DNA from: Asparagopsis taxiformis | Taxonomy: Eukaryota > Rhodophyta > Florideophyceae > Bonnemaisoniales > Bonnemaisoniaceae | Assembly (NCBI GenBank): GCA_030407315.1 | Contig: JALQPE010003003.1 | Span: 45,568-109,567 of the forward strand | Direction of reading: 5' to 3' | Length of the DNA: 64,000 nucleotides | Part shown: positions 12,460 to 36,072 of the stretch, one piece after another | Position numbering within the stretch: position 1 is the first letter of the stretch | How the letters are laid out: each line of letters opens with the position of its first letter | Translations under genes and position numbers: made by a program | The notes under the pieces: model-generated | Database searches by the model: none | What the model was told of the DNA's origin: nothing | Seen by the model: only the letters and a program-made list of their open reading frames with translations

Positions 12460-13119
12460 TGTCATACCACGCGGTGGTCTGCCCTGGTGGGGTCGTGTCA
12501 ACATCCTATTGGATGAGCCCGGGTCGGGACTGACCAATAGAAACAGCCTCGCTGTATCTCGCCCAAGTCAAGGGAATGGACCCACTGGGACAATTAAAGA
12601 CCCCACAAGGGGCAAATTTTAACTAAGCTAACTCAGCTAACTTTACACTGTAACACTAACAGTTGGTGATCTCGCGGGCTCCCGCAGTCGCCATAATCAG
12701 GGATCTGATTGGTGCACCTAAGGATATTTATTCCTAACTGTCTACCTACCCTAACTGTTTACAGTAACTTAGACTAGTATAAAACGCCTCTGGATTAGCC
12801 AGAGTGCTTAACCTTTTAGAGGTAACATAAACTCACGTGGAATTTACGACTCCACTGAACAGTGTTTGCATCGCTCTTTTCTATCCTTCTAGGACGAATT
12901 AGCTTTAGCTATACAGCTCGACGGGTTACGTCTTTCTGCTCCATCAATACGCACTCCGTGCGTGAGCACCCCCAACCTTCACCCGGCATTACCGGAAGAC
13001 CTTTCGTGGTATACACGCCATTGGCGGTTGACGCAAGATTCGCTTGCTCTACCACGCTACCGAAGCTCGGGACACCTGTAGGGTGGTTTTGCCGCTTTGC
13101 GGATTTTCTACCTACTACA
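12460..13119 (+). repeat. E1 5' LTR
   Basis: 660 bp, TGTCATACC...CTACTACA. It matches 23898-24557 base for base as far as I can read, and its outer part (GACCCCACAAGGGGCAAAT block and the last 100 bp) is recognisably related to the E2 LTR. Confidence 0.95.
12778..12784 (+). promoter_or_regulatory. Putative TATA box of the E1 LTR
   Basis: TATAAAA about 320 bp into the LTR. The same heptamer lies at the matching place on the minus strand of the E2 LTR (35713-35719) and in the E1 3' LTR (24216-24222). Confidence 0.55.
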
Positions 13120-13137
13120 TTGGTCTCTCGACCTAGA
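13120..13137 (+). other. E1 primer-binding site (probable)
   Basis: The sequence just after the 5' LTR starts T-TGGTCTCTCGACC. TGG within two bases of the LTR end is the standard complement to a tRNA CCA terminus. I cannot name the tRNA from this alone. Confidence 0.55.
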
Positions 13138-13232
13138 ATCTTACCGACATCTTAGCCGACCGGCGACACACCGAAACCACTCAAGAAGAGTAAACTCGTC
13201 GTGAGACGTGAGCTCATTGAGCAAGAGTAGAA

Positions 13233-15164
13233 GTGATGCCATCGGACAAGTCTCCGGAACACTCTGACTCCGAGTCAGGCCCTATCGGGGGATGTTCAAA
13301 CGAAGAATTCGTCACTGAGGAAGGAGTCTTCCGACTTATGCATGAACATGCAGACAAGATTCTCAATGATAAATTGAAAGAGATGCGCGACGAGATCAGC
13401 CAAGCTGTTGAGGACACCCTCGATGATAGACACGGCGATCTCGTCTCAACTCTCGTGGATAACACGATTGATTTGCTTGCACCCAAGCTGAAAGCCATTT
13501 GCCACGAAGTGGTAGATGAGAAAGAAGTAGAAGTCTTCTCGGGGACGTGGAAGTCTATCCGTGTGGATTTTCTACAACGGGTTATCCGGCTTGAGAAGAA
13601 GGTCACCGACCTACAAAGGAGAAGCTACGCTAGTTCTTCTTCCGATCATCAGCACCAAGGGCTGTGGAATCAACAAGACGGCACTGCCGAGAACAGCGTA
13701 GCTGTGGAAGCCGAGAAGCTCGACAAGGTCGTTGACGTCACCAGACGTTTGTCGGATCGAGTGGATTTACTCAGCGAGTCTCTCGCCCGTCCGGTACCAA
13801 GTACAAATCCCAACATGAGTGACCCAGTTTTCGGGTTCGATTCACCTTCGAATCCATTCGAAACAGAAGAAGGACCCCTGGAACCAGGCTTAACTCCTTT
13901 AAGAGCCCGCGAACCCGCGTTCGATCGTGTAGTATCCTACCGGTATTACCGGTTACAAGACAAGTCGTCATCGACAGAAGCTCCGAACGGAAAGAGTAGA
14001 AGTCTCTACAAGATAACGGAAAAGATCCGGAACTTCAATGCGTCCTTGACGCCGTTCGATGGAACGCAACCCATCGATATACTTCGATTCCTTGCGGAGT
14101 ACCAAGATGCTTGTGACTCCTGCGGAGTATCAGAAGGAATAGCAACAAAGTTGCTACGTTATTTCCTTGAAGGAGATGCGCAACGCTTCATCGCGTCCGA
14201 ATCTCGGAAAAGGAAGTTGCTAAATCAACTGCACCAGCAGATAACTTGGCCACAGGCCGTCCATGCTTTACTTACTCGTTATGCAACGGATACAGTTTTG
14301 GCTGACGCCTACGACGCGGTCACGCGTATTAAACAATAACCTCACGAGGATGAGGCAGAATACGCCGATAGACTGCAAGAGGCCGCACTGTTGTGTGCTA
14401 ATGTTTTCTCTGAGAGAGACTTGGTAAACTATTACCTCAAAGGGCTACGCCCGGGGGTAAAAGACACCGTTAAGGTGACTGTTGGCCGAGACGGCGAAGA
14501 CTTCCTTGCGGTACGCAATTTGGCTAAAGGACTCGGAGATTCCTTAAGAGCCACCACAGCCGACACGGCTAGGCCCAAGATGTACCCTAGTAGGGAGCTT
14601 GCCGAAAGGAAACGCAAAGCGTTAGTAGCTACCATGGCTAATGAAGACCTCGGAATGAGGAGAGAAATGTCTACGTCGCAGACGTTACAACCACTGACCG
14701 TGGGACCGAACGCGGAGACACCGCCGATGGAGGTACCGCCCCTCACAGAGGAACATGTGAGTCTTGCCGAATCCATGATCCCGAAGGGAGCGGTCAATTG
14801 GCGCTGCTCCGGATGCCGGCAACCCGGTCACGTGCTGTACACATGCCCGTACCTCTCCCGTTCCGTGGGAATGTATTTCGCTTTCGCGAACTATGCATAC
14901 CAGCAAGAGCCGGAACAAGTCATGCGCCGCCAGCAACGGCAATTCGACAAGTTCAAGAAGAAGCAGGTCCCTGCTAAAACAGTTCTCCAACGGCAGAAAC
15001 CGTTTCCGCGAATGGTCGCGTTTGCCGAGGACAACAACGTCGTGGAACAAACAAATCTTGCTTCCGGATTGCAACGGAGTATTGGTCCTTCTCGTTCGGA
15101 AGAAACCGCAGTTGATGCTCTAGCATCTTCAGATGAAACATCCGACACTTCGTCGGAAAACTAA
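13233..15164 (+). CDS. gag: E1 gag, one premature stop
   Basis: One frame of 643 codons interrupted only by TAA at 14337-14339; homology to retrotransposon capsid continues directly through it (VTRIKQ, stop, PHEDEAEYADRLQEAA). The N-terminal 200 residues are acidic and helical. The capsid-like part (about 270-430) has the usual FLAEYQDACDSCG and LVNYYLKGLRPGVKDTV motifs. A single CCHC knuckle lies near residue 525 (CSGCRQPGHVLYTC, from about 14806). The protein ends TSSEN at 15164. Gag would form the virus-like particle and bind the element RNA. The stop would make it non-functional without read-through. Confidence 0.9.
15155..15161 (+). promoter_or_regulatory. Candidate -1 frameshift site G-GAA-AAC at gag end
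   Basis: The last gag codons read TCG GAA AAC TAA. Pol lies in the -1 frame relative to gag and is open across this point. The same G GAA AAC occurs in the same phase at the gag end of E2 and near the gag end of B. The A-site slip AAC to AAA is good, the P-site slip GAA to GGA is poor, so this is a candidate only. Confidence 0.35.
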
Positions 15165-15178
15165 CCGGGGGGAGTGAG

Positions 15179-16480
15179 GTGTCGCGCTCCCGCCAGGGGG
15201 TGGAACAGCTTCGCTGTGGGGTGGATATCGCACCATCTACACCTCCACAGGGTGGAACGAAGAAACCAAAACGGTTGAACCGTCCTACCCAGACACCAAC
15301 CGGGGATATCCCTTATCCCCTCCCCTCTCAGCCAAAGGCTGCATGTCTCTTGAAGGCAGCCCACTACGTGGTTTTAGGTTCGATCGGAATTTCCGAGACA
15401 CTTCTAACGCCCATGCGTATGGTTATGGACACTGGTTCCGGTCCTTCGGTCGTCCAAGAATCAACCTTACCGAAGGGATGGAAGGCCTATGCCGCGCAGA
15501 CCGGGAATATCCCTCAACTGGCAGACGCCAATGGTAATCCTCTCAGGATAACGGGAAGAATCAAGCTGCTAATACAGCTAGGCCGAAAGCTTCTGGACGC
15601 AGAATTCTTTGTAGCCCCTAAGCTGGCAGTACCAGTTATCCTGGGAACAGGTATCATGAACTCGCATGTAGAGGCAATTCGATGCCGCGCTCAGCGCATT
15701 GATGTGCATGATGGTGGCTCGATAGCCATACTGCTTATGCAGAATGTGAGTAAAATGAACAACTCTTCTTCTTCTTGCTATATACATGATTCAAGCCCTT
15801 CGCAGGGTACTGACTTGGACCACCAGTCCAACAGGATCCGGCTAGCAAGAGAAATCACCCTTCCCCCCATGAGTCAAGTAACCGCATCGGTTGTCTGTGC
15901 TGGGGGCGGACTAAGCCTCCTCGAGGCGAAGGGAAAACTTTTCCACCGACAGCGGATCTCAATGCCGAACGGCATTGCCGAAATCATTCCTCGAACAGTC
16001 TTCACTGTTATTCTAACGAATTTTGGGTCAGCAGAGAGATACCTCCCGAAGGGGACGGTTGTTGGTATTGCTCGTCGAGCACCCGGCACAGCCGATCGAA
16101 AGCTCCCCAGTGAGTTATCCTCTTCCGGTACAGACCGTATCATCAGTCTGACCAACCCGGCGACGGGAACCAAGGAGAAAGAGAATCCGCAATGGCGGGA
16201 GGATGTATCCTTGGAACACCTTCAGCAACCGCAGTTGAAGGAGAAAATTATAGCGATGCTATCGCAGCATGAGTCCATGTGGGACGGGTCTCTTGGAGAC
16301 ATTAAAGCAACCGAGCATCGGATCGATGTAATCGAAGGAAGTCGACCTCGTCGACAGCAACCATACCGGATGGGACCCTTGAGAAGGGAGCTAGCAAGTA
16401 AGGAGATCATCTCCATGCTAGAGAAAGGGGTCATCGAACCCTCGAATTCTGAGTGGGCTAGCCCAGTTGTCTTGGTACCC
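15179..16480 (+). CDS. pol: E1 pol, part 1: protease and start of RT
   Basis: No ATG lies at the start of this frame; the first possible initiator is a GTG at 15179 and the frame is open back into gag, which favours frameshift translation. A retropepsin-type protease has its catalytic MDTGSG at about residue 84 (nt 15428) and the second half ILGTGIMN. The RT domain begins with QPYRMGP, EKGVIEPS and SPVVLVP. The frame is lost at about 16481, where one A is missing from CCC(A)AGAAGGAT compared with the CCGAAGAAGGAT of E2; reading resumes in the next frame. Confidence 0.9.
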
Positions 16481-16482
16481 AG

Positions 16483-19400
16483 AAGGATGGTAAGCTACGC
16501 TTTTGCGTTGACTACCGCCGTCTCAACGATATCACAATATCGGACGCTTATCCGTTGCCTCGTATGGACGATTGTATAGACTCCTTAGGAGATGCACGCG
16601 TGTTCACCACGCTTGACTGTAACTCGGGCTATTGGCAGATTCCCGTTGCCTCCGAGGATCGGGATAAGACGGCCTTTACGTCGCACCTTGGAACATATCG
16701 ATTTAAACGATTGCCCTTCGGGCTGAAGAATGCGCCCGCCACGTTCCAACGTGCTATCGATATTATCTTAAGCAGCGTACGCTGGCAAACTTGTCTCATC
16801 TATCTTGACGACGTCATCGTCTTCTCACGGAGTGAGGAAGAACACCTTCATCAGGTGGATCAGGTACTCACACTGTTGAGGAAGGCAGGGGTAACCCTCA
16901 AACTGGCCAAGTGCCACTTCTTCGAAGCGAAGGTAGATTACCTTGGACATGTGGTTATGCCAGGTAAGCTGGCGGTCGCCCAAACGGCAACGGACGCTAT
17001 TGCGAAAGCAACTTTTCCGACCACACCTACGCAAATGCGTTCTTTCCTCGGGAGCTGCGGGGTCTTCCGCCGTTTCGTGAAGGGGTACGCGGATATCTCC
17101 CACCCCCTCAACGCGATGTTGACTAAGGAAAACCTACCGAGCTTCGGTTCAATGCCTCCAACAGAGGAACAACGCCACGCGTTTGAACAACTCAAGGAAT
17201 CCTTGGTGCAACCACCAATATTGGCTCTGCCCAGAGTGGGTAAACCATACATCGTAGACACGGACGCTTCTGCGTATCAGATAGGGTGTGCGCTGTTGCA
17301 ACAGCAGGATGACGACGACTATCGTCCTGTAGGATACTGGTCGCGGACCTTAACCAAACCCGAACGGGGATATTCTCCGACAGAGCGCGAGTGTCTCGCT
17401 GTAGTATGGGCAGTCACTACCCTCAGACCATACCTTGAGCAAACAAAGTTTGTGGTACGATCCGATCATAACGCGTTGCGTTGGTTGATGAACATCACCG
17501 ACCCATCCGGGCGCCTTTGCCGTTGGCGACTCCGCCTTTTAGAGTTTGACTACACCATAGTCTATCGCCCCGGTAGGGTTCACCAAGTACCAGACGCGTT
17601 ATCGCGTGTTGAAACAGAAGGGTTAGACCCACATCCGGTGGATGACGAAATTCCCACACTCTTCGCGTATGACCTTACCCAGGAAGTACCTGTTACAGAA
17701 GAGATGAACCCTTGGTTCTTTGATGTGCTCATCGCGCGGAATTACACTGACAAATCCCTAACGGGAATAAACCCAGCTGTCCTAACGACACACCCTCAGA
17801 CAGAGGGTTCCGAACCGATAACACTCAACGAGTGGATTGAGGAGCAACGCTCTGATGACTTTTGTCAACAAGTATTGGCAAGTCAGAAGTCTGACACTGT
17901 CTTCTTTGAAGATGACCAAGGTGTCTTGCGACGTAAATCCAATCTGGACAATTCCCACCAAGTGGTTGTACCAAGAACACTCAGGCCCCGCCTGTTGAAG
18001 ATGTGTCATCACGACGTACTCGCGGGTCACCCCGGACAAAACCGTATGTATGAGACTATGCGTCTCTCGTATTATTGGCCTGCCATGGCCGCGGATATAA
18101 CCGCTACGGTTGAACGTTGTCAGGCTTGCGCCAAGAACCGCCTCAAGTTGCGTAGACACGCAAACACATTGAAACTATTCCCAGCTTCAGCACCGCTGGA
18201 AGAAGTCTCTATAGACTTATTAGGCCCGTTGCCTAAAACAAAGAAGGGTAACCTTCACCTTTTAGTAATTACCTGTCGCTTCACGAAGCTTACTCAGGTT
18301 GTACCATTACGCAGTATCACTGCTTACCATGTGGCTGTTGCCTTTTGCACCCACTGGGTTTTCAAGTACGGTCCCCCTAGGACGTTGCTTTCCGATAATG
18401 GACCTCAGTTTGCTTCCAAACTTTTTCAGGCTGTTTGCCTGCAACTTGGAACAAAGAACTTGTTCACAACAACCTACCACCCTCAGACCAACGGTCAGGT
18501 AGAACGGTATAACCGTACGTTGTTGAACATGTTACGCAACTACGTAAATGAGAACCAGAATGACTGGGATGTATACGCACCAGCGTTGACTTACGCGTAT
18601 AATACGCACGTGCATCGCACGACAGGGACGACACCCTTTGACCTTATCCTAAGTCGACCCCCACCACCTTACTCCCTTCATCACTCGACGAGATCACGGC
18701 AAAAACCGAGTAAACCGGACGCTTTCTTGAAACAGGATTTCCTGCAACGGATTGCTCACGCGATTGAGAAGTCTGGTCAACGGCTACAAGCCACGCAAGC
18801 GCGTTATAAACGGGACTTTGACCGAAGGATCCGGAAGACCAAACGACTCCTCCAGGAGGGTGACTACGTCTACCTTGACAACCCCGAAGTACGGGAACGA
18901 AACAAGTTGACGCCACTGGCGCAAGGACCTTTTAAGGTTGCTAAAGCCGGTAGGCGTACCGTCCATATTGAACGTGATGGACTTGTCGAACAAGTTAGCC
19001 ACGACCGCGTGACGTATGCGCCACAACCTGAACAGGAAATACCGCACTTACGGTTAACTTCTAACGGAGCACCCGTACCTGCGGCAAGAACCGACGATCA
19101 AGCCGCCAACACGGTGCCGACTATGGCGGAAGAACGACTACGTCGCGAGACATCAGGTCCGCAGCGCGTACCTCTTCACACCGGACAACCCCCAGGTCAC
19201 CCTGTAACCAAGCCTTTGTCATCCCGCTCCGCGGTTGAAGGTAATTCCGTAACTAACACACCGAGTATCGGTCCGAGACGAACCGTCTTTGAGGAGGGGG
19301 CCCAGGCTGACATACGTCGTAATAACAATGCTGCTTCACAGCCAATGCCCACTCAAATTGACCTCGCCGAGGATGAAACTCTTGACACAATGCAGGAACC

Positions 19401-19887
19401 TGCTTCCCAAGACGCCAACAAGACGTTCTCCCGGCTTCGCCGATCAACCCATAAGGCACCAACCGGAACAAGTCCGAAGAAGAATAGTCGCTCTCGTCGA
19501 CAAACAAGAATAAGCCGACCACACGGCATGGAAATATCCCAAGAAGCCACTTCGGCTGAGCCGATAAACCCTGCGGGTGACACGGCCAACACCGGAAGCA
19601 GACGACGCTCGTCGAGCCAAGAGGTTATACCCGAACCGGGAACTGTCTCCCACAACCTGGGACCACCTGAGGAACAGGAATTCGCCATAGACGACTTGAT
19701 CGATTATGTCGTCGACGACGATCAGGAGGAATGGTTCCTCGTGAAGTGGTACGGGTATCGTGACCCTACGTGGACGCAACGGCACAACGTGCCAGACGAG
19801 CAAATATCTCGGTACTTCCGGAAAGTTGACCGCCAAGCGGGTAAGAAAACGTCTAAACGACGAACGGCCAAAAGGCGTGGTAAGTAG
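16483..19887 (+). CDS. pol: E1 pol, part 2: RT, RNase H, integrase, chromodomain
   Basis: Continues part 1 after the 1-bp deletion. RT: FTTLDCNSGYWQ (motif A), FGLKNAPATFQR and the catalytic LIYLDDVIVFS at about 16801. RNase H: DTDASAYQIG, ERECLAVVWA and RSDHNALRWL. Integrase: an HHCC zinc finger (CHHDVLAGHPGQNRMY...CQACAKN), then D, D and E in IDLLGPLP, LLSDNGPQF and NGQVERYNRTL, with a GPY/F-type end (LAQGPFKV). A disordered spacer of about 200 residues leads to a C-terminal chromodomain (IDDLIDYVVDDDQEEWFLVKWYGYR and following). The chromodomain places it among chromoviruses and suggests targeting to methylated histone tails. Confidence 0.95.
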   Translation, partial: KDGKLRFCVDYRRLNDITISDAYPLPRMDDCIDSLGDARVFTTLDCNSGYWQIPVASEDRDKTAFTSHLGTYRFKRLPFGLKNAPATFQRAIDIILSSVRWQTCLIYLDDVIVFSRSEEEHLHQVDQVLTLLRKAGVTLKLAKCHFFEAKVDYLGHVVMPGKLAVAQTATDAIAKATFPTTPTQMRSFLGSCGVFRRFVKGYADISHPLNAMLTKENLPSFGSMPPTEEQRHAFEQLKESLVQPPILALPRVGKPYIVDTDASAYQIGCALLQQQDDDDYRPVGYWSRTLTKPERGYSPTERECLAVVWAVTTLRPYLEQTKFVVRSDHNALRWLMNITDPSGRLCRWRLRLLEFDYTIVYRPGRVHQVPDALSRVETEGLDPHPVDDEIPTLFAYDLTQEVPVTEEMNPWFFDVLIARNYTDKSLTGINPAVLTTHPQTEGSEPITLNEWIEEQRSDDFCQQVLASQKSDTVFFEDDQGVLRRKSNLDNSHQVVVPRTLRPRLLKMCHHDVLAGHPGQNRMYETMRLSYYWPAMAADITATVERCQACAKNRLKLRRHANTLKLFPASAPLEEVSIDLLGPLPKTKKGNLHLLVITCRFTKLTQVVPLRSITAYHVAVAFCTHWVFKYGPPRTLLSDNGPQFASKLFQAVCLQLGTKNLFTTTYHPQTNGQVERYNRTLLNMLRNYVNENQNDWDVYAPALTYAYNTHVHRTTGTTPFDLILSRPPPPYSLHHSTRSRQKPSKPDAFLKQDFLQRIAHAIEKSGQRLQATQARYKRDFDRRIRKTKRLLQEGDYVYLDNPEVRERNKLTPLAQGPFKVAKAGRRTVHIERDGLVEQVSHDRVTYAPQPEQEIPHLRLTSNGAPVPAARTDDQAANTVPTMAEERLRRETSGPQRVPLHTGQPPGHPVTKPLSSRSAVEGNSVTNTPSIGPRRTVFEEGAQADIRRNNNAASQPMPTQIDLAEDETLDTMQEPASQDANKTFSRLRRSTHKAPTGTSPKKNSRSRRQTRISRPHGMEISQEATSAEPINPAGDTANTGSRRRSSSQEVIPEPGTVSHNLGPPEEQEFAIDDLIDYVVDDDQEEWFLVKWYGYRDPTWTQRHNVPDEQISRYFRKVDRQAGKKTSKRRTAKRRGK

Positions 19888-19931
19888 AACGGCAGAGCTG
19901 CCCCACAGCGAAGCTGTTGTACGCAAGAGCG

Positions 19932-22361
19932 TCAGTAGGAACGGCTAGTGATCGCGGCGTCACCGCTAATGACCACAAGGTTGAGCCGGTAAGACCCCAC
20001 GAACAGCACCCGTCGGGTTGGCCAAATAACAAAAACCGCGAGCGGTAGAAATATGAAGCCAATCGGCGGACGAAAAATCCATAAAAACAACAAAAACATT
20101 CCAAATTTTAATGGGAGACATGACAAAGCCGCACACGGCGCATGGATGAACGATCTAACATAAGAGTGAAACGCAAATGCGTATAAGAAGGTAAACCCGG
20201 TTACGGAAGTAAGACGTCTAACGTCGGAAGTTGTCGGAGGGACGGGGCGCTGATGCGAAGGGTAGGAAGAGGTTGGCCTCAATGACCGGTTGGTCGGATG
20301 TTGAGCCGTAGAACGAAGAGTGTCGCGAGGACGAATGCGTCCAGCATCCCGACGGGAAGTGGTTAAACGAGCCGGTGGGCGATGATGAGGCACAGCAGGG
20401 ACTGAAGGAACCGATACCGTCGGAGAATTAGTGACCACCTCATCGGACATATCCGGAGACTCCTCCCTCACGGGATCCCGTGATTCGATGCGCTGAAGCA
20501 ACGGCGGAGTCGTGTTAACTGGAGAAGCGCGCCGGGGGCGGACATTTCGACCATCGTCGCGCTCAGCGGGAGAACGATCCCGACGACGACCGGATATCCC
20601 TCCTCGAGGTTGAATACTAGCTGGAGTCTCCAGGGCGTGTGTCGTATCCCTACCCCGCTCATGCGGTATGCGCCTACGCGCTAAGCGCAATTCTTCCTCA
20701 AGCTCTCGGACTCTTGTCACTAGTTCATCGAACGTCTTCTGCCTCGCAGTTAAGTCCTTTTCCAATTTTGACACCTTCTCTTCCGCTAAGCGGCGACCTG
20801 TACGCTCTGCGCGATAGCGCGTTACTGCAGCATCCCGTCGCTCGCGACTTTCCTTGTACCGAGTACCCAACGTGACACACGTTAACGCCAAAGTATCCAA
20901 CGCATTGCGAACGGGGTAACCGTCATCCCGTGGATGAAACACCGACGAAAGTTGGCCATCACCAAGACTATCCGCCAATTGGCGCACATTCGTAACCGAT
21001 AATAACTGCGCCGCAGACAAACTGGATCCAAGAACATCCGCGCGAGCGGTAGCACGACCGACTGTACCGCCATCCTCGAGTGACTGACCGGATTGACGGT
21101 CTGGTGACAGAAACGGCGCTGCCGTAGAAGCCGGAAGACCCGGACGGGTAGAGCGAGAAAGATCCAGTGGGGCTGGTGGAGGGACAACTGCCTGGGGTTC
21201 CATCGCTTCGTAAGAAGCTGGCTCTACAGGAGCAGTTGGATGAGGAGAGACGCCGGAATCGGCTGGACGATAATGACCAGCAGGTGTCGAACGCCCAGGG
21301 CGTGGAACGTGCATCTCCCGTTCGGGTTTGTACATGTAGTCCTCCAAATCTCCGTCGGAGTAACTTGGCGGGTCGACCGTAAGATAACCGTCCTCGGCAA
21401 ATTCACCGTCCCGACGAAACGGAGGAGTCTCAACCACAATCCCGTCCCGGGTAGTATACGCCGCGGCTTTCGCCGGTTTGAAGGGTAAACTCGGATGCGA
21501 GTAAAGGAAGATCTTCTCGGGCGCAACGCCTTCGATTGTACAAGCAATCTCCTCGACACCATCGGTGGTCTTGTAAGAAGCCTCGAGGAGCTCGATGATA
21601 ACCTTCACATCTACGCTACGCGTCTTCGGTACAACTGGTGATAACGGCATCTCATGGAATGTCTTCCACGTCGTGATAGCCGACTCTGCCAAGTGCTTGG
21701 CTAACACCGGGAGGAACCCTCTAGTCTCTACGAGACGAGCCAACTCCAAACCCATCATGAGCTCTCGCTCTAACAGGACATAGTCCAAAAACCGAGGCTT
21801 CACCCAAGGACGGGGATCCGCCTCTACCACACTGTGGAAATGCAGCATCGCTGGTGTATCCCCAATGGGCAAACACAAGGGCGGTGAGTTCTCGCCTTCC
21901 CATCGGGAATCTTCCAACGTCGAATTCAGCTCTGCTGTAGGTACCACCAAGTTCGCAGTGCGATGGTCTATGCTCCGATTAGCTCGGTAACCGAACACTC
22001 GGTAGTCAAGTGACGACACTTGCAAACCGGTAGTCCGGGCTAGGTGACGCGCGTGTACACGCATGTGATATTCCAACATACCGGTATCCGGGCGGGGCGG
22101 ATACGCAAACCATCTTGACCTAACGATAGGTAAGTCGGGAACGCTCCCTTGATCCGAGTGTGACTCGAACAATCTACGGTTCATCCGCTCAACGTACAAG
22201 GCATCGCCTGGGTGAAGAAGAAAGGTACGGTCGCACAGCAACGTGTGTGGTACACGGAAATGTCGCATCGGCCGACACGACGGCAATTGGGCATAAGCCG
22301 ACCAGCTGTTATGCAGCGCATGGGTATCACGGTGTTTAACACCTGCCATGAGACGGAGGTC
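19932..22361 (-). CDS. E1 antisense ORF, C-terminal part (unknown conserved protein)
   Basis: 805 codons on the strand opposite to gag-pol, convergent with pol and ending only 44 bp from its stop. It is continuous in frame with 22362-23420; the two are separated by one TGA. The core (WSAYAQLPSCRPMRHFRVPHT, LHPGDALYVERMNRRLF, WFAYPPRPDT, ITGVAPEK-like, PFRRDGEFAEDGY) matches the E2 antisense protein closely. A second conserved helical module (LLSVTNVRQLADSLGDG, then a coiled coil of about 80 residues rich in ERR and EEL) follows. The last 90 residues are strongly hydrophobic and absent from E2, so the original stop may have been lost. No RT, integrase or envelope signature is seen; function unknown. 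Confidence 0.85.
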   Translation of the reverse strand, partial: DLRLMAGVKHRDTHALHNSWSAYAQLPSCRPMRHFRVPHTLLCDRTFLLHPGDALYVERMNRRLFESHSDQGSVPDLPIVRSRWFAYPPRPDTGMLEYHMRVHARHLARTTGLQVSSLDYRVFGYRANRSIDHRTANLVVPTAELNSTLEDSRWEGENSPPLCLPIGDTPAMLHFHSVVEADPRPWVKPRFLDYVLLERELMMGLELARLVETRGFLPVLAKHLAESAITTWKTFHEMPLSPVVPKTRSVDVKVIIELLEASYKTTDGVEEIACTIEGVAPEKIFLYSHPSLPFKPAKAAAYTTRDGIVVETPPFRRDGEFAEDGYLTVDPPSYSDGDLEDYMYKPEREMHVPRPGRSTPAGHYRPADSGVSPHPTAPVEPASYEAMEPQAVVPPPAPLDLSRSTRPGLPASTAAPFLSPDRQSGQSLEDGGTVGRATARADVLGSSLSAAQLLSVTNVRQLADSLGDGQLSSVFHPRDDGYPVRNALDTLALTCVTLGTRYKESRERRDAAVTRYRAERTGRRLAEEKVSKLEKDLTARQKTFDELVTRVRELEEELRLARRRIPHERGRDTTHALETPASIQPRGGISGRRRDRSPAERDDGRNVRPRRASPVNTTPPLLQRIESRDPVREESPDMSDEVVTNSPTVSVPSVPAVPHHRPPARLTTSRRDAGRIRPRDTLRSTAQHPTNRSLRPTSSYPSHQRPVPPTTSDVRRLTSVTGFTFLYAFAFHSYVRSFIHAPCAALSCLPLKFGMFLLFLWIFRPPIGFIFLPLAVFVIWPTRRVLFVGSYRLNLVVISGDAAITSRSY

Positions 22362-23420
22362 TCAACGCAAGTCGGTAACGTCCTCGCTTAAAAACTCCCG
22401 TAGGGGCAGGCGTGCAAAAGGGTAATACTCCCACGGAGCTCTCAAATACCTTGAAAAAGGCAACTCATGTGAGTCAAAGACCATGAGCTCCGAAGCATTC
22501 GAAGGATAAAATTCGCCTTCGCGACGCCAATCGGCGGAAGGAGCCGGAACCCGCTTGGGCGATGAATAAGTCGGCGCAGCCGTAACAGCAGGAGCTGGTT
22601 TTTGGTACGGATCTACCAACTGACCTTGTCTTCCTTGCGGTTGCACCGTCTCATATCCACCGGACCCATACGCGGCTCGCGTCGAATTGCTAGCAACCAG
22701 CCCGCGACCCGCTTCTTCGGCCGCCTTGCGGTTTCGCGCATCGATGATGAATTGCCGATTACGGCTGTATAAGTCCTCGTAAGGATTCTTGGACTTAACC
22801 GGCTCAGCCGTAACGGGATTCCATGTGGACGAGCGAGGGTTCGCATAAGGATCCGGATACTCCGATGGACGGGGAACGATGGAACGGCCTGTGACGGCAG
22901 GAGCGGCAGAAGTCGCGGGGGTCGAACTGGGCTGCGAAGCCGCAGCAGCGTCAACGATAATTTCTGCCGGTTCCGGCGTGCGGCGCGAAGGCTGGGGAGT
23001 CCCTTGCTTGTCCGATGGCGGTGAACGCAGGGTATCCCGTTGAACTTCAACTTCTTCTACCTCAGGATGAGGGTCGCTTGGGGGCGGAACTACCGAAGGC
23101 AGCACAACCGGTTTACCGGGATTGTCTTTACGAGGCGTAACCTCAGGTGAGGGACTCGGCGGACGGTGAGCGGCCGAAGGTGTCTTCGCCTGTTCTTGAC
23201 CAGTCCCTGTAGAGGGTTTAGCCTGCGAACCGGAATCCGGTGGTTGAGAAGAAGAAGCTGGAACGCCAGCAGCGGAAGCGGAAGGGTTAGTTGTCGGCGT
23301 CGCTGGGGTTGGAGTCGAAGGTGCGCGCGACGCCTGATGGCGGGTGGTTTGACGGCGGGAAGCCGCCCGCGTAGAACGTGTTGGCATGTTGCCTGTCGGG
23401 CTGTTAATGCGATCGACCAT
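22362..23420 (-). CDS. E1 antisense ORF, N-terminal part
   Basis: 352 codons from ATG near 23418-23420. The first 250 residues are Pro/Ser/Thr/Ala-rich with a basic start (RRQTTRHQAS, shared almost exactly with E2). The conserved region opens at PSADWRREGEFYPSNASELMVFDSHELPFSRYLRAPWEYYPFARLP, of which the matching E2 stretch is about residues 356-402. The frame ends at TGA 22362-22364. At this point E2 has an Arg codon in an alignable context, so this is a CGA to TGA type nonsense change rather than a natural boundary. Its promoter should lie between 23421 and the 3' LTR. Confidence 0.85.
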   Translation of the reverse strand: MVDRINSPTGNMPTRSTRAASRRQTTRHQASRAPSTPTPATPTTNPSASAAGVPASSSQPPDSGSQAKPSTGTGQEQAKTPSAAHRPPSPSPEVTPRKDNPGKPVVLPSVVPPPSDPHPEVEEVEVQRDTLRSPPSDKQGTPQPSRRTPEPAEIIVDAAAASQPSSTPATSAAPAVTGRSIVPRPSEYPDPYANPRSSTWNPVTAEPVKSKNPYEDLYSRNRQFIIDARNRKAAEEAGRGLVASNSTRAAYGSGGYETVQPQGRQGQLVDPYQKPAPAVTAAPTYSSPKRVPAPSADWRREGEFYPSNASELMVFDSHELPFSRYLRAPWEYYPFARLPLREFLSEDVTDLR

Positions 23421-23861
23421 GCTGAGTAACAGCAGTCCTTAAATACTCCACTGGAGTCAGAAGCAACGCAACAGACAAGTCGTACGGTCGCCACAGGCGT
23501 GAGGTCTTGCTTGAATCCCGAAGGGACGCCGCGGAAGAACGCAAGGCGGGTATTACCCTTAACGCAAGAAAAATCGCGTATCACGCGCGCAAACCTCAGC
23601 GAGGCACAAGACTTGAATCGCCAGTGTGAGATCGCTTCGCAAACCGGCAGGACCGGAGGGAGAACAAGGTTGGACAACACTGCCACGCCGGTGAAGGGAC
23701 GCAAACCCGAAGGGTCGTTACTCAGATGATGGGCGATGCTCGGGAGTGGAACCGTGTGCACGGGTAAATATCAGCCAAATTTTGGCGGTCAAAATTTTTA
23801 TCCGGTTGGCCGGCCACGGCGGTGGAAATATTTTGGGAATTTAAAATCAGTAGATTTTTGG

Positions 23862-23880
23862 AATTGTCGGGACGACAATT
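23862..23880. promoter_or_regulatory. Perfect inverted repeat next to the polypurine tract
   Basis: AATTGTCG GGA CGACAATT, eight-base arms. The same TTGTCG-3-CGACAA dyad lies at the corresponding place in E2 (36073-36089) although flanking sequence is diverged. Its position upstream of the antisense ORF and beside the plus-strand primer site suggests an operator-like or structural role. Confidence 0.6.
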
Positions 23881-23885
23881 GGCTT

Positions 23886-23897
23886 AGGAGGGGGCGA
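23886..23897 (+). other. E1 polypurine tract
   Basis: AGGAGGGGGCGA immediately before the 3' LTR. E2 has AGGAGGGGGCCG in the same place. Confidence 0.85.
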
Positions 23898-24557
23898 TGT
23901 CATACCACGCGGTGGTCTGCCCTGGTGGGGTCGTGTCAACATCCTATTGGATGAGCCCGGGTCGGGACTGACCAATAGAAACAGCCTCGCTGTATCTCGC
24001 CCAAGTCAAGGGAATGGACCCACTGGGACAATTAAAGACCCCACAAGGGGCAAATTTTAACTAAGCTAACTCAGCTAACTTTACACTGTAACACTAACAG
24101 TTGGTGATCTCGCGGGCTCCCGCAGTCGCCATAATCAGGGATCTGATTGGTGCACCTAAGGATATTTATTCCTAACTGTCTACCTACCCTAACTGTTTAC
24201 AGTAACTTAGACTAGTATAAAACGCCTCTGGATTAGCCAGAGTGCTTAACCTTTTAGAGGTAACATAAACTCACGTGGAATTTACGACTCCACTGAACAG
24301 TGTTTGCATCGCTCTTTTCTATCCTTCTAGGACGAATTAGCTTTAGCTATACAGCTCGACGGGTTACGTCTTTCTGCTCCATCAATACGCACTCCGTGCG
24401 TGAGCACCCCCAACCTTCACCCGGCATTACCGGAAGACCTTTCGTGGTATACACGCCATTGGCGGTTGACGCAAGATTCGCTTGCTCTACCACGCTACCG
24501 AAGCTCGGGACACCTGTAGGGTGGTTTTGCCGCTTTGCGGATTTTCTACCTACTACA
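23898..24557 (+). repeat. E1 3' LTR
   Basis: Second copy of the 660-bp LTR, identical to 12460-13119 as read, followed directly by the GCCGG duplication. Confidence 0.95.
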
Positions 24558-24562
24558 GCCGG
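24558..24562. repeat. Target-site duplication of E1, right copy (GCCGG)
   Basis: Matches 12455-12459. Removing E1 and one copy restores the phase of element B's antisense ORF. Confidence 0.9.
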
Positions 24563-24931
24563 TGCGCCGTCAGCGACGGAAGCGTCCGTCGCGCCCGCCC
24601 CAACCATTAGGGCGGGCCAAGCCGTTGCTTCGCAGGCCGTCGCCTCGTCGTCTCGCCCGATGGCTCCGTCTCGCCTGGTGGCTTCCGTGACGCCTGCCGA
24701 GGCTGCTAGGGCCGATGCCCCACGTGACGATGACGCAACGGCGTCCGACTCGGGGAATTCGTCACCCATCGTTCCGGAGGTCGCGGCCCCGTCTGTGGGT
24801 GTAGCCGCGATGGCAGCGGCCGCTCGTTCGCGTCGTGCTGGGGCAGCGGCCCGCACGGGCGTGCCTCGTCCGCTCGTTCGCGTCGTGCTGGGGCAGCGGC
24901 CCGCACGGGCGTGCCTCGTCGTGACGGGTAG
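24563..24931 (+). pseudogene. Element B antisense ORF, N-terminal low-complexity part
   Basis: Continues the 12353-12459 fragment in phase: Ala/Pro/Ser/Arg-rich sequence as in the other antisense proteins. A 50-bp tandem duplication (24820-24919) shifts the frame by two. An in-frame TAG at 24929-24931 then precedes the conserved part. The frame reading on to 25025 is the shifted one. Confidence 0.65.
24820..24919. repeat. 50-bp perfect tandem duplication
   Basis: 24820-24869 is repeated exactly at 24870-24919. As 50 is not a multiple of three, it moves the antisense frame from one phase to the other; the phase downstream (25010-26734) is the one expected after this shift. Confidence 0.9.
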
Positions 24932-25009
24932 CCTCGTTCCCCTCGCCAGGGTCCCTCGCCGGAGAGTGGTGACCCCGCTGGGACAGTCGGCACCGCTTCA
25001 CGTGGCGGT

Positions 25010-26734
25010 GTGGCGCTCAACGTAGGCGTCCTGACCCACGCGTGGGCTGTGTTGCCTCGCGTGGCTATCACGGATGACGATCTCGCCACGTTGGCCAAAG
25101 ATCGTCTAGACGCCCGCGCGGTTGTCGACTATATGCGTTCCGCCGAGGATAAGTGGGTGCGTGAAGCCGGGCGTCGCTTCGCCGTCGGGCCGCCGGGATC
25201 GGAACGTTACCAGATCCCGGCGTCGATACGTTGCGACCGCTCGTGGTTGCGTGACGTCAACGACGCGATCTACGTGGATCGTATGGACGCGTTACTGTGG
25301 AAGGGAACGCCCAAGGAACCGCCGTTCATCTCGGTGGCGTCCGTATTCGTGTGTCCGCGGACACTTTCCGAGAGGCAACGAGCCGAATGGAAGACCGCCC
25401 TTTCGTTGAGCGTCATATCCAAGAGCGTGGTGTCATACGACGACCATTTCGCGCTCCGTCACGTGAACGCGGACGACTACCGCGTGTCGCACGCGTCGGC
25501 TCCGTTGGTCGTCCCGAGCGAGCTCTACTTCCCGCCGTTGCCGGAAGTGGTAGAGGAGTTCCCGTACCCCCGTGGGTCGTCCACGTTGCTACCACGCGTG
25601 GTGCACTATTTTACCGATGCCGTGAAGGATGCGCCTGCCCCCGTGAAGGAACGTTTCCTCATGGCCGTGGACATCGAACACGCAGCGATGCTCGCATGCT
25701 CGCTGTTCGTGGAACGTCGTGTGTTCGGGCGCGCGTGCCTACTGCCGGAGTCCACGTTGGACTTCCTGGCCGACTACGAGATGCTTCGTGCAATCCCAGT
25801 GGACGGCTCTGACACGTTCGTCTCCGTTACCAGCGCGTTGGCTGAGGCTCGCGGCGCCCTTGCGTTGGGGCCGGAGTATCGCGTTATACGCCCCGACTAC
25901 GCAAGCGGCGATAATCAGGAGTTCGTATCCGTGCGCAGCGATGGGGCTTACGTGCCGCGGACCGCTTCCCGTTCCGAACGCCGTCGTGGCAATCGTACTG
26001 GTTATTTCGGCGGCCTCGGGAGCAACGACCGACCCCGTGGGTCGCGTTCTGGCCGTCGTGGCCATCAAAACGAAGCGCCGCGTGCGCCGGGTGCTCGAGA
26101 GATCGTGCCACGCGAGGCTACGGGAGGGGGCAACGTTGCCCGCGTCGGTCGTCCGGATGCGGCCACGCCGGCCGAGCGCGCGCCACGGTTCGTGAGCCTG
26201 GACGACCGCGTCTCCGATGAGGATGCCCGTCGGCTTCTCGGTACGTCGATGGCCGCTCCGCCTCGTGCGGACGGCTGGGTTATTCGTTCCCTTATCACGT
26301 CCGTGGCTCGCGCAGCCGAAGATTTCAGGGCCCAGACGTTGGACCTGACCGCCCGTTTGGCGACGGAACGCGCGATTTCCGAGCGTCTCGCCGCGGCGAC
26401 TCGTGGTTACGCACCGCCCGGTGGCGTGTGTAATGAACCCTACGGTTATGCGAGTGGCGGCGGCTTCGGAAACCCCGTCGGGTATGGTCACGCAGCGGCG
26501 TACCTGCCACGCGACCCCGCTTCGGCGCGCCCTTTGGATACGCGCAGTCACGGGACTGCGGATCCTTACGCTGGGGATCCCGCGTCGCGTTGCGAGCGAG
26601 CCCCCGTGGTCACGCGGACCGTCGATCCGTACGCGCCGGGCTTCGTTCAGCCCAGTCGCAGCCGCAGCCACGATAGCCGCGGCGAAGGCCCTGGGTCGTA
26701 TGACCCTGCGGGCAAGCGTTCGCGTCGCTACTAG
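25010..26734 (+). CDS. Element B antisense ORF, conserved part
   Basis: 574 codons; the first possible initiator here is GTG, so this is the body of a longer broken gene and not a separate one. Shared with the E1/E2 proteins: a core with RSWLRDVNDAIYVDRMDALLW (compare GDALYVERMNRRLF), then VNADDYRVSHASAPLVV (compare TANDYRVFAHRH), FLMAVDIEHAAMLACSLFVERRVF (compare LELERDILIGIELARTAETRGF) and a late module (SDEDARRLLG, then RSLITSVARAAEDFRAQTLDLTARL). This is strong order-preserving similarity at protein level with little at DNA level, so the family is older than these copies. Function unknown. Confidence 0.75.
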   Translation: MALNVGVLTHAWAVLPRVAITDDDLATLAKDRLDARAVVDYMRSAEDKWVREAGRRFAVGPPGSERYQIPASIRCDRSWLRDVNDAIYVDRMDALLWKGTPKEPPFISVASVFVCPRTLSERQRAEWKTALSLSVISKSVVSYDDHFALRHVNADDYRVSHASAPLVVPSELYFPPLPEVVEEFPYPRGSSTLLPRVVHYFTDAVKDAPAPVKERFLMAVDIEHAAMLACSLFVERRVFGRACLLPESTLDFLADYEMLRAIPVDGSDTFVSVTSALAEARGALALGPEYRVIRPDYASGDNQEFVSVRSDGAYVPRTASRSERRRGNRTGYFGGLGSNDRPRGSRSGRRGHQNEAPRAPGAREIVPREATGGGNVARVGRPDAATPAERAPRFVSLDDRVSDEDARRLLGTSMAAPPRADGWVIRSLITSVARAAEDFRAQTLDLTARLATERAISERLAAATRGYAPPGGVCNEPYGYASGGGFGNPVGYGHAAAYLPRDPASARPLDTRSHGTADPYAGDPASRCERAPVVTRTVDPYAPGFVQPSRSRSHDSRGEGPGSYDPAGKRSRRY

Positions 26735-28857: not shown

Positions 28858-30130
28858 TCACGTTGTGGCTCGTCGCACGCGTGCGAAGTATCGAGAGACG
28901 CTCTCTTCAGATACGTTCCGGCGGGGCTCCCACGTAGGGTCACGATACCCGACCCACTTCACGAGGAAGTCTAACGTTCCGTCCTCGTTCACGAGATGGT
29001 TGAGTAGGTCGTCTACTACATACGCCGGACCGTCGCGGTTCTTGTCGAGGTCTGCCTCGGTGGCATCGTATGGCTCCGGCGGGGGCGCGTTCGCCGGCGT
29101 TGGCGCGTACGCAACGCGGTCCGAGTTGACACGTTCAACTACGTCTCCTCGTTGGATGACGAACGTTCGTACGTCGTTACGTAGTACGCGGAACGGTCCC
29201 AACGCGTGGTTTCCGAGCTTCGTGCCCTTCGTATTCCCGTCCGTCGGGTCGATGAATACGTATTCTCCCGCGCGGATGTTTCGATTCGAGACACGGACTC
29301 GTTTGTCGAAATTTCGTTTATAACGTGCCTGCGCGGCCTTCAGCGTTCGATACGCGTTCTCCATCGTTGTGGCGAGCTCACAAACGTAAGTGGCTCGCCC
29401 TCCCCCGTCGGGTAGTTCGCGGTTCGTTACCTTCGTGTGTAGCGCCAACGGTGGCGGTGGATTCGTCAGAATCAAGTCGAAGGGCGTCGTGCCCGTGTTC
29501 GAATGCACATGCGTGTTGTACGCAAACGTTAGCGCCGATGCGTATCGATCCCAGTCGTTCTGGTTTTCGTTCACGTAATTGCGCAGCATCGCCAGGATCG
29601 TCCTGTTGTAGCGCTCCACCTGCCCGTTCGTTTGGGGGTGGTACGTCGACGTGAAGATGTTCGTTACGCCTATCTCGTTGCAAACGCGCTGGAAGAACTT
29701 AGCAGCGAACTGCTTTCCGTTGTCGCTTATGAGCGTTCGTGGGGGTCCATACGAGAAGACCCACGCGTTGACGAACGCGCTCGCCACGTTGGCGGAATCG
29801 ATATTTCGTAGAGGTACGACTCTGGTTAGCTTCGTAAAGCGGTCCGTTATAACGAGGATAAATCGGTTACCACGCGTGGTCTTCGTAAGCGGACCTAGTA
29901 TGTCGATACATAGGTCTCGCAACGGCTCCGTAGCCGGAAATAAACGTAACGGGCTCGTCCGTTTGCGAAGCTTCACGCGGTTCTTCGCACATCCGACGCA
30001 GTTTCGTACCGTTGCGTGGATGTCGGCGGCCATCGCGGGCCAGTAGTACGTCCTCCGTAGGGTATAGTACATACGCGTTTGTTCGGGATGTCCAGCGAGG
30101 ACGTGGTGGTGCGTTAATTCTAGCTGTCGC
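28858..30130 (-). pseudogene. pol: Element B pol: integrase and chromodomain
   Basis: Open from about 30130 (frameshift after VVPASLG, where the upstream frame hits TAG) to the stop at 28858. It shows TYYWPAMAADIHATVRNCVGCAKN (zinc finger end), CIDILGPL, LISDNGKQF, STYHPQTNGQVERYNRT, a GPF-type end (HALGPFRV) and a short spacer before the chromodomain VVDDLLNHLVNEDGTLDFLVKWVGYRDPTWEPRR. The integrase triad looks intact. The spacer before the chromodomain is much shorter than the roughly 200 residues in E1, so the lineages differ. Confidence 0.88.
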
Positions 30131-31900
30131 GGCCTAGCGAAGCCGGCACAACGATTTGTGTACTTTCCTCATCGTGAGGGTTCCGGCGTTGGAGTAAGCC
30201 ATCGTGGCCTTCGAAGAATGCAGCGTCCTGGGTCTCGGACTGTCGCGTCAGTATCGATTGACAGAAAGCGTCTTCACGTTGAGCTTCGATAAGCTCGTCC
30301 CTCGTAATGGGAAGCTGGACTTCAGCTGGTGGCACGCGTGCCGAGTCATCTTCAGCAGCGCGCTGTTCGTCGAGGAAATCCGGTTCCTCGTCAAGAACGT
30401 CATCGAGCGACGCGTCGCGGTTGAACTCGCGTTCATCGTGGCCAGCCGTCGTGGCTGGTGTTCGTTCGTCACGAGTCTCGTTCGACGAGTCGTCGTGACC
30501 CCTGGCATTCGGTGCCTCTTTACGTACGGACGTCGTTCGTCCTTGCCCTTTTCGTGTGGGTTGTCGCCGACTGCGGGTCGTCACGAGGACCGCGTCCCCG
30601 TACGATGGTACGTCATCGTCGACGGGTCGACCGTCGTCATACGTAGATATCACGCGTGATAAAGCGTCAGGCACCTGGTGCACGCGCCCAGGCCTGTATG
30701 TAACTTCGAAATCGAATTCGGCAACGCGTAGCCTCCATCGTAGTAGTCGTCCGGACGCGTCCGTCAACGTCATCAGCCAACGCAAGGCTTCGTGGTCCGT
30801 ACGTACGGTAAATTGTTGACCCTCTACGTAGGGTCGGAGTGACGTTATCGCCCAAACTACGGAGTAGCACTCGCGCCCAGTTGCCGAATAACCGCGTTCG
30901 GTTTCGTTAAGGGTCTTCGATCAGTACCCAATCGGCACCCATTCGTTCGGCTTATCTTCGTTTTGTTGCTGGAGCAACGTAGCTCCCAGCTGATACGCCG
31001 ACGCGTCGGTATCGATCATGAACGGACGTCCCGCCTTCGGAAGGTGCAATACTGGTGGCGACACCAGTATTGTCTTCAAAGTTTCGAACGCATTCGTCTG
31101 CGCGTCAGTTGGGTTCGCCCAATCGGGGGAAGCGTCCTTCTTCAACACCGTGTTGAGTGGCCGAGCGATCTCGGCGTACGCCTTTACGAAACGGCGGTAA
31201 ACGTTGGCCGCGCCCAAAAACGATCGACACTGCGTCTTATCCCGCGGGAACGTAGCCGTACGAAAGGCTCCCTTGTTCCGTGTTGCGACATGCAGCTTCC
31301 CTGAGGTAATCACGTGCCCCAGGTAGTCAACTCGTGGTTGAAAGAACGAGCACTTCGCGAGTTTCAAAGTCACCCCTGCTGCGCGTAGCAGGGAAAGGAC
31401 GTGGTCAACGTGACCCAGATGAGACTCGAGGTCTTTCGAAAAGTCGATTACGTCATCTAAGTAAACTAGGCACGATTGCCAACGAACTCCGGAGAGGATT
31501 ATGTCCAACGTCCGCTGAAACGTAGCGGGGGCATTTCGTAGCCCGAATGGCATTCGCACGTAGCGATACGTTCCCATGAAATACGTAAACGTTGTCTTAT
31601 CACGGTCTTCGGCGGAGACTGACACTTGCCAGTAACCGGCGTTACAGTTGAGTGTCGTGAATATGGCGGCGTCGCCCAACGAATCGAGGCAGTCTTCCAT
31701 TCGAGGAAGTGGGTACGGATCAGCGATCGTTTTCGCGTTCAAACGTCTGCAGACTACATGTAGTCGACACAGAAACGTAAGGATCCGTCCTTCTTCGGCA
31801 CCAACACGATTGGTGACTCCCATTCGCTGGACGCGGGTTCGATAACCCCTTAGTTGAGCATCTTCGTGATCTGCTCCTCGGCTATCGTACGTAGAGCCGG
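30120..31900 (-). pseudogene. pol: Element B pol: reverse transcriptase and RNase H
   Basis: One frame with a TGA at 30921-30923 where E1 has Trp (PIGYW). RT motif A reads FTTLNCNAGYWQ, so the first catalytic Asp is Asn; the YLDD box (CLVYLDDVIDFS) is kept. RNase H motifs DTDASAYQLG, ERGYSATGRECYSVVWA and RTDHEALRWL are visible across the stop. About 31.85-31.9 kb a frameshift links it to the protease part. These lesions make it inactive. Confidence 0.87.
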
Positions 31901-36066: not shown

Positions 36067-36072
36067 GAGAGA

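What the first reader, a model, noticed from the sequence alone, without database searches (positions are those of the whole stretch)
19932..23420. Large conserved antisense gene in three independent chromoviruses
E1 (23420 to 19932, minus), E2 (36450-39821, plus, intact at 1123 aa) and the older B (24563-26734, plus) all carry, between pol and the 3' LTR and on the strand opposite to gag-pol, a protein with the same layout: disordered basic N-terminus, conserved core of about 400 residues, then a helical/coiled-coil module. B matches E1/E2 only at protein level, so the gene has been kept under selection through divergence of the elements. Antisense ORFs are known in some plant Ty3/gypsy elements (for example Grande), but I recognise no relation to those or to env, integrase or RNase proteins. 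It may be a structural partner, a silencing suppressor or a regulator.
Basis: partly seen in the sequence, partly recalled or inferred. Interest (0 to 1): 0.88.

Follow-up and report, generated by a model that had tools for sequence, protein, structure and literature searches.

The report
Backward-facing accessory gene in jumping genes
Several families of chromodomain-bearing retrotransposons in this eukaryotic genome carry a large extra gene on the strand opposite to their other genes; the protein it encodes is clearly kept by selection and resembles nothing named so far, although backward accessory genes as a kind are already known from some plant and fungal elements.

Summary
The antisense gene is real. 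It is an orphan protein-coding gene of related Ty3/gypsy families with a chromodomain: E2 (1070 aa), E1 and sister E1' (1067, 1062 aa) and B (742 aa). A degenerate pattern for its core motif occurs 691 times in the 141.5-Mb assembly, reversed control 0. Among 42 E2-family copies, internal branches carry 24 nonsynonymous and 131 synonymous changes (omega about 0.075; core 0.037); in the same copies the pol linker gives 0.72 and the chromodomain part 0.11. E1 versus E1' core omega is 0.10. B is a remote homologue.
Corrections: the window's E1 gene has an in-frame stop; B's gene is cut in two by E1; B's family is abundant and mostly open, not a relic; the elements are related, not independent. 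Half of the B-type integrase places examined lacked the gene's motif at the expected spot. A conserved block with a shared palindrome (E1, E2) and TATA-like sites (E1, E1', B) precede the gene.
Most likely it encodes a basic, self-associating, nucleic-acid-binding regulator of the element; function is inferred only. Precedents are Grande/Retand in plants and Boty brtn in a fungus; no TRP28 match was found, and BRTN could not be compared.

The parts
12460..24557 (+). Element E1 (Ty3/gypsy), inserted into the antisense gene of B; LTRs 12460-13119 and 23898-24557, target duplication GCCGG (12455-12459 and 24558-24562)
   Evidence: both LTRs 660 bp with 0 differences, TG..CA ends, same 5 bases on both sides
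19932..22349 (-). E1 antisense gene, second open stretch (core, helix region, C-terminus; end out of homology with the intact copy L045)
   Evidence: aligned to E2 at 42%; compared with L045
22362..23420 (-). E1 antisense gene, first open stretch (disordered N-terminus), ending at an in-frame stop 22362-22364; second ATG at 23387 is the start that aligns best with relatives
23438..23445 (-). TATTTAAG, TATA-like, 17 nt before the E1 ATG
   Evidence: one of two such sites in the window (0.93 expected; 27 of 100 shuffles have two or more)
23864..23878 (-). Palindrome TTGTCGTCCCGACAA just inside the E1 3' LTR
12353..12459 (+). First part of B's antisense gene (MVTTCSTDTHTPRP...), cut by E1
   Evidence: intact relative L049 654-2879
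24558..26734 (+). Remainder of B's antisense gene after the E1 insertion
12134..12141 (+). TATTTAAG, TATA-like, 211 nt before B's ATG
28858..30072 (-). B integrase plus chromodomain
   Evidence: rve 2.9e-12, Chromo 9.4e-07 (29.1 bits, cutoff 25.1)
30921..32087 (-). B reverse transcriptase and part of RNase H
35372..36054 (-). E2 3' LTR (683 bp)
   Evidence: copies part from one another at 35370-35372; LTR found in L031 and L032 at 99.3-99.6%
35972..36221 (+). Conserved block at and just inside the 3' LTR; candidate promoter or cis-acting region of the antisense gene
   Evidence: 0 internal-branch substitutions in five successive 50-nt windows over 42 copies; 35722-35921 inside the LTR is equally conserved
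36074..36088 (+). Palindrome TTGTCGTCCCGACAA, same as in E1
   Evidence: 380 exact genome matches, control 0
36555..39821 (+). E2 antisense gene; first ATG 36555, conserved start ATG 36609 (1070 aa), TTG start of the finding 36450
37788..38087 (+). Well conserved core stretch, holds motif DALYVERM
39168..39380 (+). Predicted 71-residue helix (coiled-coil-like)
   Evidence: model residues 72-142; block mean pLDDT 84-97 over residues 71-140
40129..40851 (-). E2 pol C-terminal open frame with a chromodomain-like region
   Evidence: Chromo 0.0053, 17.1 bits, below the cutoff of 25.1; constrained
40952..45148 (-). E2 pol (protease, RT, RNase H, integrase); E2 is truncated at 45296

Best explanation
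The feature is a genuine accessory gene of a Ty3/gypsy lineage with a chromodomain, probably present before the B and E families split. It lies between pol and the 3' LTR on the opposite strand. It is probably read toward pol from its own promoter region: the conserved block inside the 3' LTR plus, in E1, E1' and B, a TATA-like site. It makes a basic protein of about 740-1070 aa with a disordered N-terminus, a conserved core of about 420 residues (E families), a long helix and an arginine-rich tail. The most likely role is that of a nuclear, oligomeric, nucleic-acid-binding regulator or accessory factor of the element's own life cycle. Shown: coding capacity, purifying selection (E families), position, antisense orientation, wide presence. 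Inferred: transcription, promoter, oligomerisation, nucleic-acid binding, nuclear place, role.
For: Purifying selection, E2 family, 42 copies: internal branches 24 N / 131 S (omega 0.075), core 0.037; the other two frames give about 3. Same copies and method: chromodomain part 0.113, pol linker 0.72. E1 vs E1': 0.21 overall, core 0.10, likelihood-ratio statistic against omega 1 = 295 and 226. Frames kept open: 35 of 42 E2 matches and 74 of 76 B matches without stops. Core motif 691 times, reversed control 0, with synonymous codon differences among the 50 places whose letters were shown. Antisense in each linked case: 66 of 121 E2-type integrase places had the core at the expected distance on the opposite strand, 0 on the same strand. 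Conserved block. Palindrome 380 times; 51 of the 69 listed up to C377 stand 1.6-1.8 kb before the core motif on the same strand, 0 within 2.2 kb of it on the other. TATTTAAG twice in the window, each before one of these genes; TATATAAG at the same place in E1'. pI 9.4-9.6, basic ends, no transmembrane-like stretch. Helix model, mean pLDDT 78 in the best of five models. Grande's antisense protein is reported nuclear and transcribed from its own promoter (PMC7264820, passages).
Against: No transcript, localisation or binding data. The core has no usable model (pLDDT 32). The helix model is supported by one model of five (means 78, then 60-67; pTM 0.42) and has no PDB match at E <= 0.001 (best 0.41). 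E2 has no clear TATA-like site, and two TATTTAAG by chance are not rare (27 of 100 shuffles). The conserved block is not unique: 35722-35921 inside the LTR also has 0 internal substitutions, and it adjoins the polypurine tract, so it may serve the sense strand. B genes lack the palindrome (0 of 21). Half of B-type integrase places up to C377 lack the motif at the expected spot (11 of 22 have it; one miss runs off the contig), and five of the ten assessable misses have an open pol frame of 1533 aa, so the gene may be dispensable in cis or supplied in trans. The E1 window copy has identical LTRs yet interrupted gag, pol and antisense frames, again suggesting trans supply. E2 copies were picked by protein score, which favours conserved ones; selection on B was not measured.
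Confidence: 0.5

Rival explanations
1. Suppressor of host silencing: the protein protects the element from small-RNA or chromatin silencing by acting on RNA or on its own locus.
For: Strong constraint and basic tails fit an RNA- or chromatin-binding protein; sense and antisense transcripts would converge and could make double-stranded RNA, for which a suppressor would be useful (inference).
Against: No Pfam family at E <= 1 except a weak filament match; host silencing machinery was not examined; no functional data.
Confidence: 0.2
2. Self-limiting repressor: the protein, or the antisense RNA, keeps copy number down.
For: Antisense position; retroviral antisense genes and Grande are discussed as regulators (PMC11963269, PMC7264820, passages).
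Against: Many copies (121 integrase places and 150 core places in capped lists, 691 motif matches), so control would be weak. A purely RNA-level role would not hold amino acids while letting synonymous sites change.
Confidence: 0.12
3. Structural protein of the particle, second gag-like or env-like.
For: Large size, disordered basic ends and a helix are compatible with a nucleocapsid-type protein (general knowledge).
Against: A separate gag exists (L031 1633-3588, Retrotrans_gag 1.6e-06). No 19-residue stretch above 1.71 on the Kyte-Doolittle scale in the four proteins. gag and pol show no BLAST match to it at E <= 1.
Confidence: 0.13
4. Passenger: a captured host gene or chance open frame without function for the element.
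For: No relatives beyond own-type fragments were found, so an origin by capture is possible.
Against: Omega 0.04-0.1 in the core; kept in lineages whose pol proteins are 57-62% identical; wrong frames give about 3 on internal branches.
Confidence: 0.03

Closest known systems
Antisense aORF (aORF-3R) of plant Grande, RIRE2, Retand (TRP28 domain, PF04195, in Retand)
   Same: Large open frame between pol and 3' LTR, antisense, in most E2-type members checked; Grande's is reported with its own promoter and a nuclear protein (PMC7264820, section 5 and passages; PMC11963269, passages)
   Different: No PF04195 match at E <= 1. Retand is described as a non-chromovirus lineage (PMC11963269), whereas these elements have a chromodomain
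brtn of Boty-like elements in Botrytis cinerea (Zhao et al. 2011)
   Same: Antisense additional gene between pol and 3' LTR of a fungal element (PMC7264820 section 5; title of Zhao et al. seen in the reference list of PMC8365987)
PvRetro13 ORF2 of Phaseolus (SMC-type domain)
   Same: Antisense gene between pol and 3' LTR (PMC7264820, section 5 and passages)
   Different: No SMC match in Pfam at E <= 1
HBZ of HTLV-1
   Same: Antisense retroviral gene making a nuclear regulatory protein (PMC11963269, passages)
   Different: No bZIP match in Pfam (that HBZ is a bZIP protein is recalled); no transcript shown here
Chronos elements of oomycetes
   Same: Ty3/gypsy with a chromodomain after integrase (PMC5348765, passages)
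   Different: Chronos has two RNase H domains; only the Ty3/gypsy type was matched here. The word 'antisense' does not occur in that paper's main text

Membership tests
Antisense accessory genes of Ty3/gypsy elements (aORF-3R) | Open frame between pol and 3' LTR, opposite to gag-pol | tested here: met
Antisense accessory genes of Ty3/gypsy elements (aORF-3R) | Present in most copies and conserved like the element's other proteins | tested here: inconclusive
   E2: 18 of 22 places, constraint like the chromodomain part; B: 11 of 22, 8 of 10
Antisense accessory genes of Ty3/gypsy elements (aORF-3R) | Antisense transcript from its own promoter | not testable with these tools
   No RNA data; only sequence hints
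Retand-type TRP28 proteins | Match to PF04195 | tested here: not met
   no match at E <= 1 in the window's four frames or in L045, L046, L049
brtn of Boty | Sequence homology to BRTN | not tested
   Sequence not at hand
Chromovirus | Chromodomain after integrase | tested here: met
   B above the Pfam cutoff; E1 and E2 below it (17.3 and 17.1 bits of 25.1)
Chromovirus | Place in the chromovirus clade of an RT tree | not tested
   Other gypsy lineages gained chromodomains separately (PMC5348765, PMC12477816, passages)
Chronos | Second, archaeal-type RNase H | tested here: not met
   One search lists no further RNase H family in E1 or E2 pol
Retroviral env | Transmembrane segment, sense orientation | tested here: not met
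   (hydropathy only; no signal-peptide program was run)
HBZ-type antisense factor | bZIP domain | tested here: not met
   No bZIP family in Pfam at E <= 1

The most novel reading that the evidence does not exclude
The antisense gene encodes a self-associating DNA-binding protein whose target in E elements is the conserved palindrome TTGTCG-TCC-CGACAA beside the 3' LTR. Each E element would then carry its own locus-acting, two-way transcription switch, a non-retroviral counterpart of HBZ. This would explain why an antisense protein, which cannot be packaged with its own messenger, is nevertheless kept under strong selection.
Probability: 0.12. Interest if true: 0.75.

Novelty: new variant of a known kind. 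Interest (0 to 1): 0.5.

Why it matters
The role of antisense accessory genes of LTR retrotransposons is described as unknown (PMC7264820, PMC11963269). This one had no named relative in three searches of 5.8 billion proteins and sits in chromodomain elements. It has measurable purifying selection, several divergent families in one genome, hundreds of motif matches, and a cis motif at a fixed place beside it in E elements. That makes the open question of what these genes do, and how a protein from the other strand can be kept by element-level selection, testable by comparative and biochemical means.

Tried and rejected
Rejected: chance open frame (omega and wrong-frame control); env (no hydrophobic segment); TRP28 relative; gag duplicate (no gag/pol BLAST match to the gene); Chronos; 'old relic' for the B family. 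Led nowhere: AlphaFold of the core (pLDDT 32; not used further); helix model against PDB (82 matches at E <= 10, best E 0.41, most of the 50 rows shown are MDM2; not claimed); viral contigs with E2 (0 relatives); Rfam (0); sigma-70-type promoter scan (1 found, 0.5 expected; wrong promoter type); rotifer LTR elements with additional ORFs (PMC5408684, passages: no antisense gene in them); naming the organism (not achieved). The helix region of E2 has a basic stretch before a leucine-rich part like a bZIP; this was seen by eye, looked different in E1, and was dropped. L047 and L048 (degraded E1' relatives) were fetched, read for open frames and left out of the codon tests. Literature searches behind 'no earlier report seen': (CC-licensed PubMed Central only).
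Full report
What is there. The window belongs to a 141.5-Mb assembly of 3156 contigs; the organism was not identified. Three Ty3/gypsy elements lie nested or side by side. E1 (12460-24557, plus) has two 660-bp LTRs without differences and a 5-bp duplication GCCGG. B (minus) was split by E1. E2 (minus) starts with its 3' LTR at 35372 and is cut at 45296, where a 2.2-kb repeat begins, so its gag and 5' LTR are missing here; L031 shows them in another copy and L032 shows the LTR. The polymerase is of Ty3 type (best solved structure Ty3 Gag-Pol, 387 bits). B has a chromodomain above the Pfam cutoff; those of E1 and E2 are below it. E1 and E2 pol are 77% identical, and B is 57-62% identical to either over the parts aligned, so the elements are relatives, not independent.

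The antisense gene. E2: open from ATG 36555, with the conserved start at 36609, to 39821. E1: the same gene broken by an in-frame stop at 22362-22364 and changed at its end; an intact relative is L045. E1' (L046) is a sister family, 76% identical to E1. B: ATG 12353, interrupted at 12459 by E1, resumed at 24558 and ending at 26734; an intact relative is L049 (742 aa). Layout in all four: an N-terminus of which about half is P, S, T or A, with a basic start; a core; a helix-like region; a basic end. E1 and E1' (from their second Met) and B begin MPTRST, MPPRST and MVTTRST; E2 has TTRSS a little further in. The B relation rests on 22% identity over 264 residues (E = 1e-7), rank 4 of 512 window frames behind the three E-type stretches (E = 1.2e-4, next 0.39), and 13.0 bits against 3.7 for the best of 1000 shuffles.

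Selection. Forty-two E2-family places were returned (35 of 42 without stops); all 42 were used. On a FastTree tree with parsimony counts the antisense frame has 24 N and 131 S on internal branches (omega 0.075), and 146 N + 9 stops against 304 S on terminal branches (0.21). The two other frames give 3.1 and 3.0 (internal), 1.8 and 2.1 (terminal). By region, internal: N-terminus 0.083, core 0.037, core end and linker 0.107, helix region 0.04, C-terminus 0.60 on only 7 changes. In the same copies the chromodomain part gives 0.113, the whole C-terminal pol frame 0.47 and the disordered pol linker 0.72, so the method reports near-neutral values where expected. The copies were ranked by protein similarity, which favours conserved ones. 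Free of that ranking, pairwise codon likelihood on one copy each gives E1 versus E1' omega 0.21 (dS 0.72), core 0.10, linker 0.61 and not different from 1. E1 or E1' versus E2 is saturated or nearly so at synonymous sites and is not used for a value. Selection on B was not measured.

How common. A pattern for D-A-x-Y-V-[D/E]-R-M matches 691 times in the genome, reversed control 0. B-type: 76 places scored, 74 without stops. E1-type: 64 matched stretches, mostly in two groups, about 90-98% and 70-79% identity. Many rows there count two in-frame stops, because the window's E1 frame runs past the normal end: the places of L045 and L046 are so marked, yet their genes are open. Linkage to pol was tested from the integrase side. 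On contigs up to C377, which the motif list covers, 17 of 22 have the motif, and one more (C127) has the core. For B, 11 of 22 have the motif; one of the 11 misses runs off its contig. In a DNA check of ten B places not in the list, six of them among those 22, 8 carry the gene. Of the ten assessable B misses, five have an open pol frame of 1533 aa, the others 592-1277, so B-type elements with long open pol but without the gene, or with it moved or its motif changed, exist.

Surroundings. Between the E2 3' LTR and the gene, substitutions are uneven: 0 on internal branches in 35972-36221, 14 in 36222-36271; 35722-35921 inside the LTR also has 0. The first block holds TTGTCGTCCCGACAA, which lies at the same place in E1 (23864-23878). 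It occurs 380 times in the genome, control 0. Of the 69 occurrences listed up to C377, 51 stand 1.6-1.8 kb before the core motif on the same strand and none lies within 2.2 kb of it on the other; 18 have no motif at that distance. Of the 50 motifs with printed letters, 24 of 29 E-type have the palindrome and 0 of 21 B-type. TATTTAAG occurs twice in 64 kb (0.93 expected; two or more in 27 of 100 shuffles), and each site precedes an antisense gene, B at 12134 and E1 at 23438; E1' has TATATAAG at the place corresponding to E1. E2 has no such clear site. These are sequence hints of a promoter, found after looking, not proof. The block also lies next to the polypurine tract, so part of its conservation may serve the sense strand.

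What it is not. No Pfam family at E <= 1 except a weak filament match to the E1 helix region. No PDB sequence match better than 0.68 for E2. In the protein database, three word-limited searches found four relatives, fragments of E1, E1' or E2 type (P0001 is 99% identical to E1' L046; the others judged by eye), and none for B. The core model is unusable. The helix region is modelled as one 71-residue helix with no significant PDB match.

Mechanism. Shown: a protein-coding gene, antisense, in a fixed place, under purifying selection in the E families, old within this lineage. Inferred: its own promoter region; a basic, self-associating protein that binds nucleic acid; a role in control of the element. 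The inference rests on composition, the helix and the analogy with Grande, whose antisense protein is described as nuclear and driven by its own promoter (PMC7264820, passages). A puzzle remains: a protein made from the opposite strand cannot favour its own RNA by packaging, yet it is kept. A locus-bound action would solve this, and in E elements the palindrome at a fixed place is a candidate target; this is the novel reading and is untested. Against a strict need in cis stand the B-type places without the motif and the E1 window copy, whose LTRs are identical although gag, pol and antisense frames are all interrupted, as if it had been moved by proteins of others; gene conversion between the LTRs is another possibility.

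Known or new. [quoted passage not shown] PMC11963269, passages; Zhao et al. 2011 seen only as a reference in PMC8365987). The kind is therefore known. The protein family and its occurrence with a conserved cis motif in chromodomain elements were not found in the papers searched. The label chromovirus is not proven, because other gypsy lineages gained chromodomains on their own (PMC5348765 and PMC12477816, passages).

Noticed in passing
window 49470-52932 (-): A gene-like region with an N6/N4 DNA methylase domain (PF01555, 6.2e-16) and an adjacent SET domain (PF00856, 6.7e-08). It is repeated: 78 places (the number scored), 92-100% identity, most without stops, open frames up to 1198 aa, so it is probably carried by a mobile element. 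A DNA methyltransferase gene on the opposite strand of a Sola transposon is reported in Ectocarpus (PMC12477816, passage).
   Followed up: partly
window 45296-47470 and 58871-61034: Two direct repeats, 98.4% identical over 2183 columns, with further repeated units about 390 and 500 nt apart, flanking about 11 kb in which no reverse transcriptase frame was seen; the left one starts exactly where E2 is cut. They flank the methylase/SET region.
   Followed up: no
window 54960-57344 (+) and 57422-58666 (-): Two long open frames (794 and 414 aa); the first has only sub-cutoff coiled-coil-like Pfam matches, the second none.
   Followed up: no
window 12460-24557: E1 has two LTRs without differences but a stop in gag, split pol frames and a stop in the antisense gene, as might be expected for a defective copy mobilised in trans.
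   Followed up: partly
window 23864-23878 and 36074-36088: Exact palindrome beside the 3' LTR shared by E1 and E2, 380 copies in the genome, 51 of 69 listed in fixed place and orientation to the antisense gene, absent before the 21 B-type genes checked.
   Followed up: yes
window 3684-7093: Likely host genes: a sulfotransferase-like frame (+) and a CHY/RING zinc-finger protein (-).
   Followed up: no
L031 1-8001: A second, 94.5% identical stretch of E2 type follows the first in the same orientation on contig C319, a nested or tandem arrangement.
   Followed up: no
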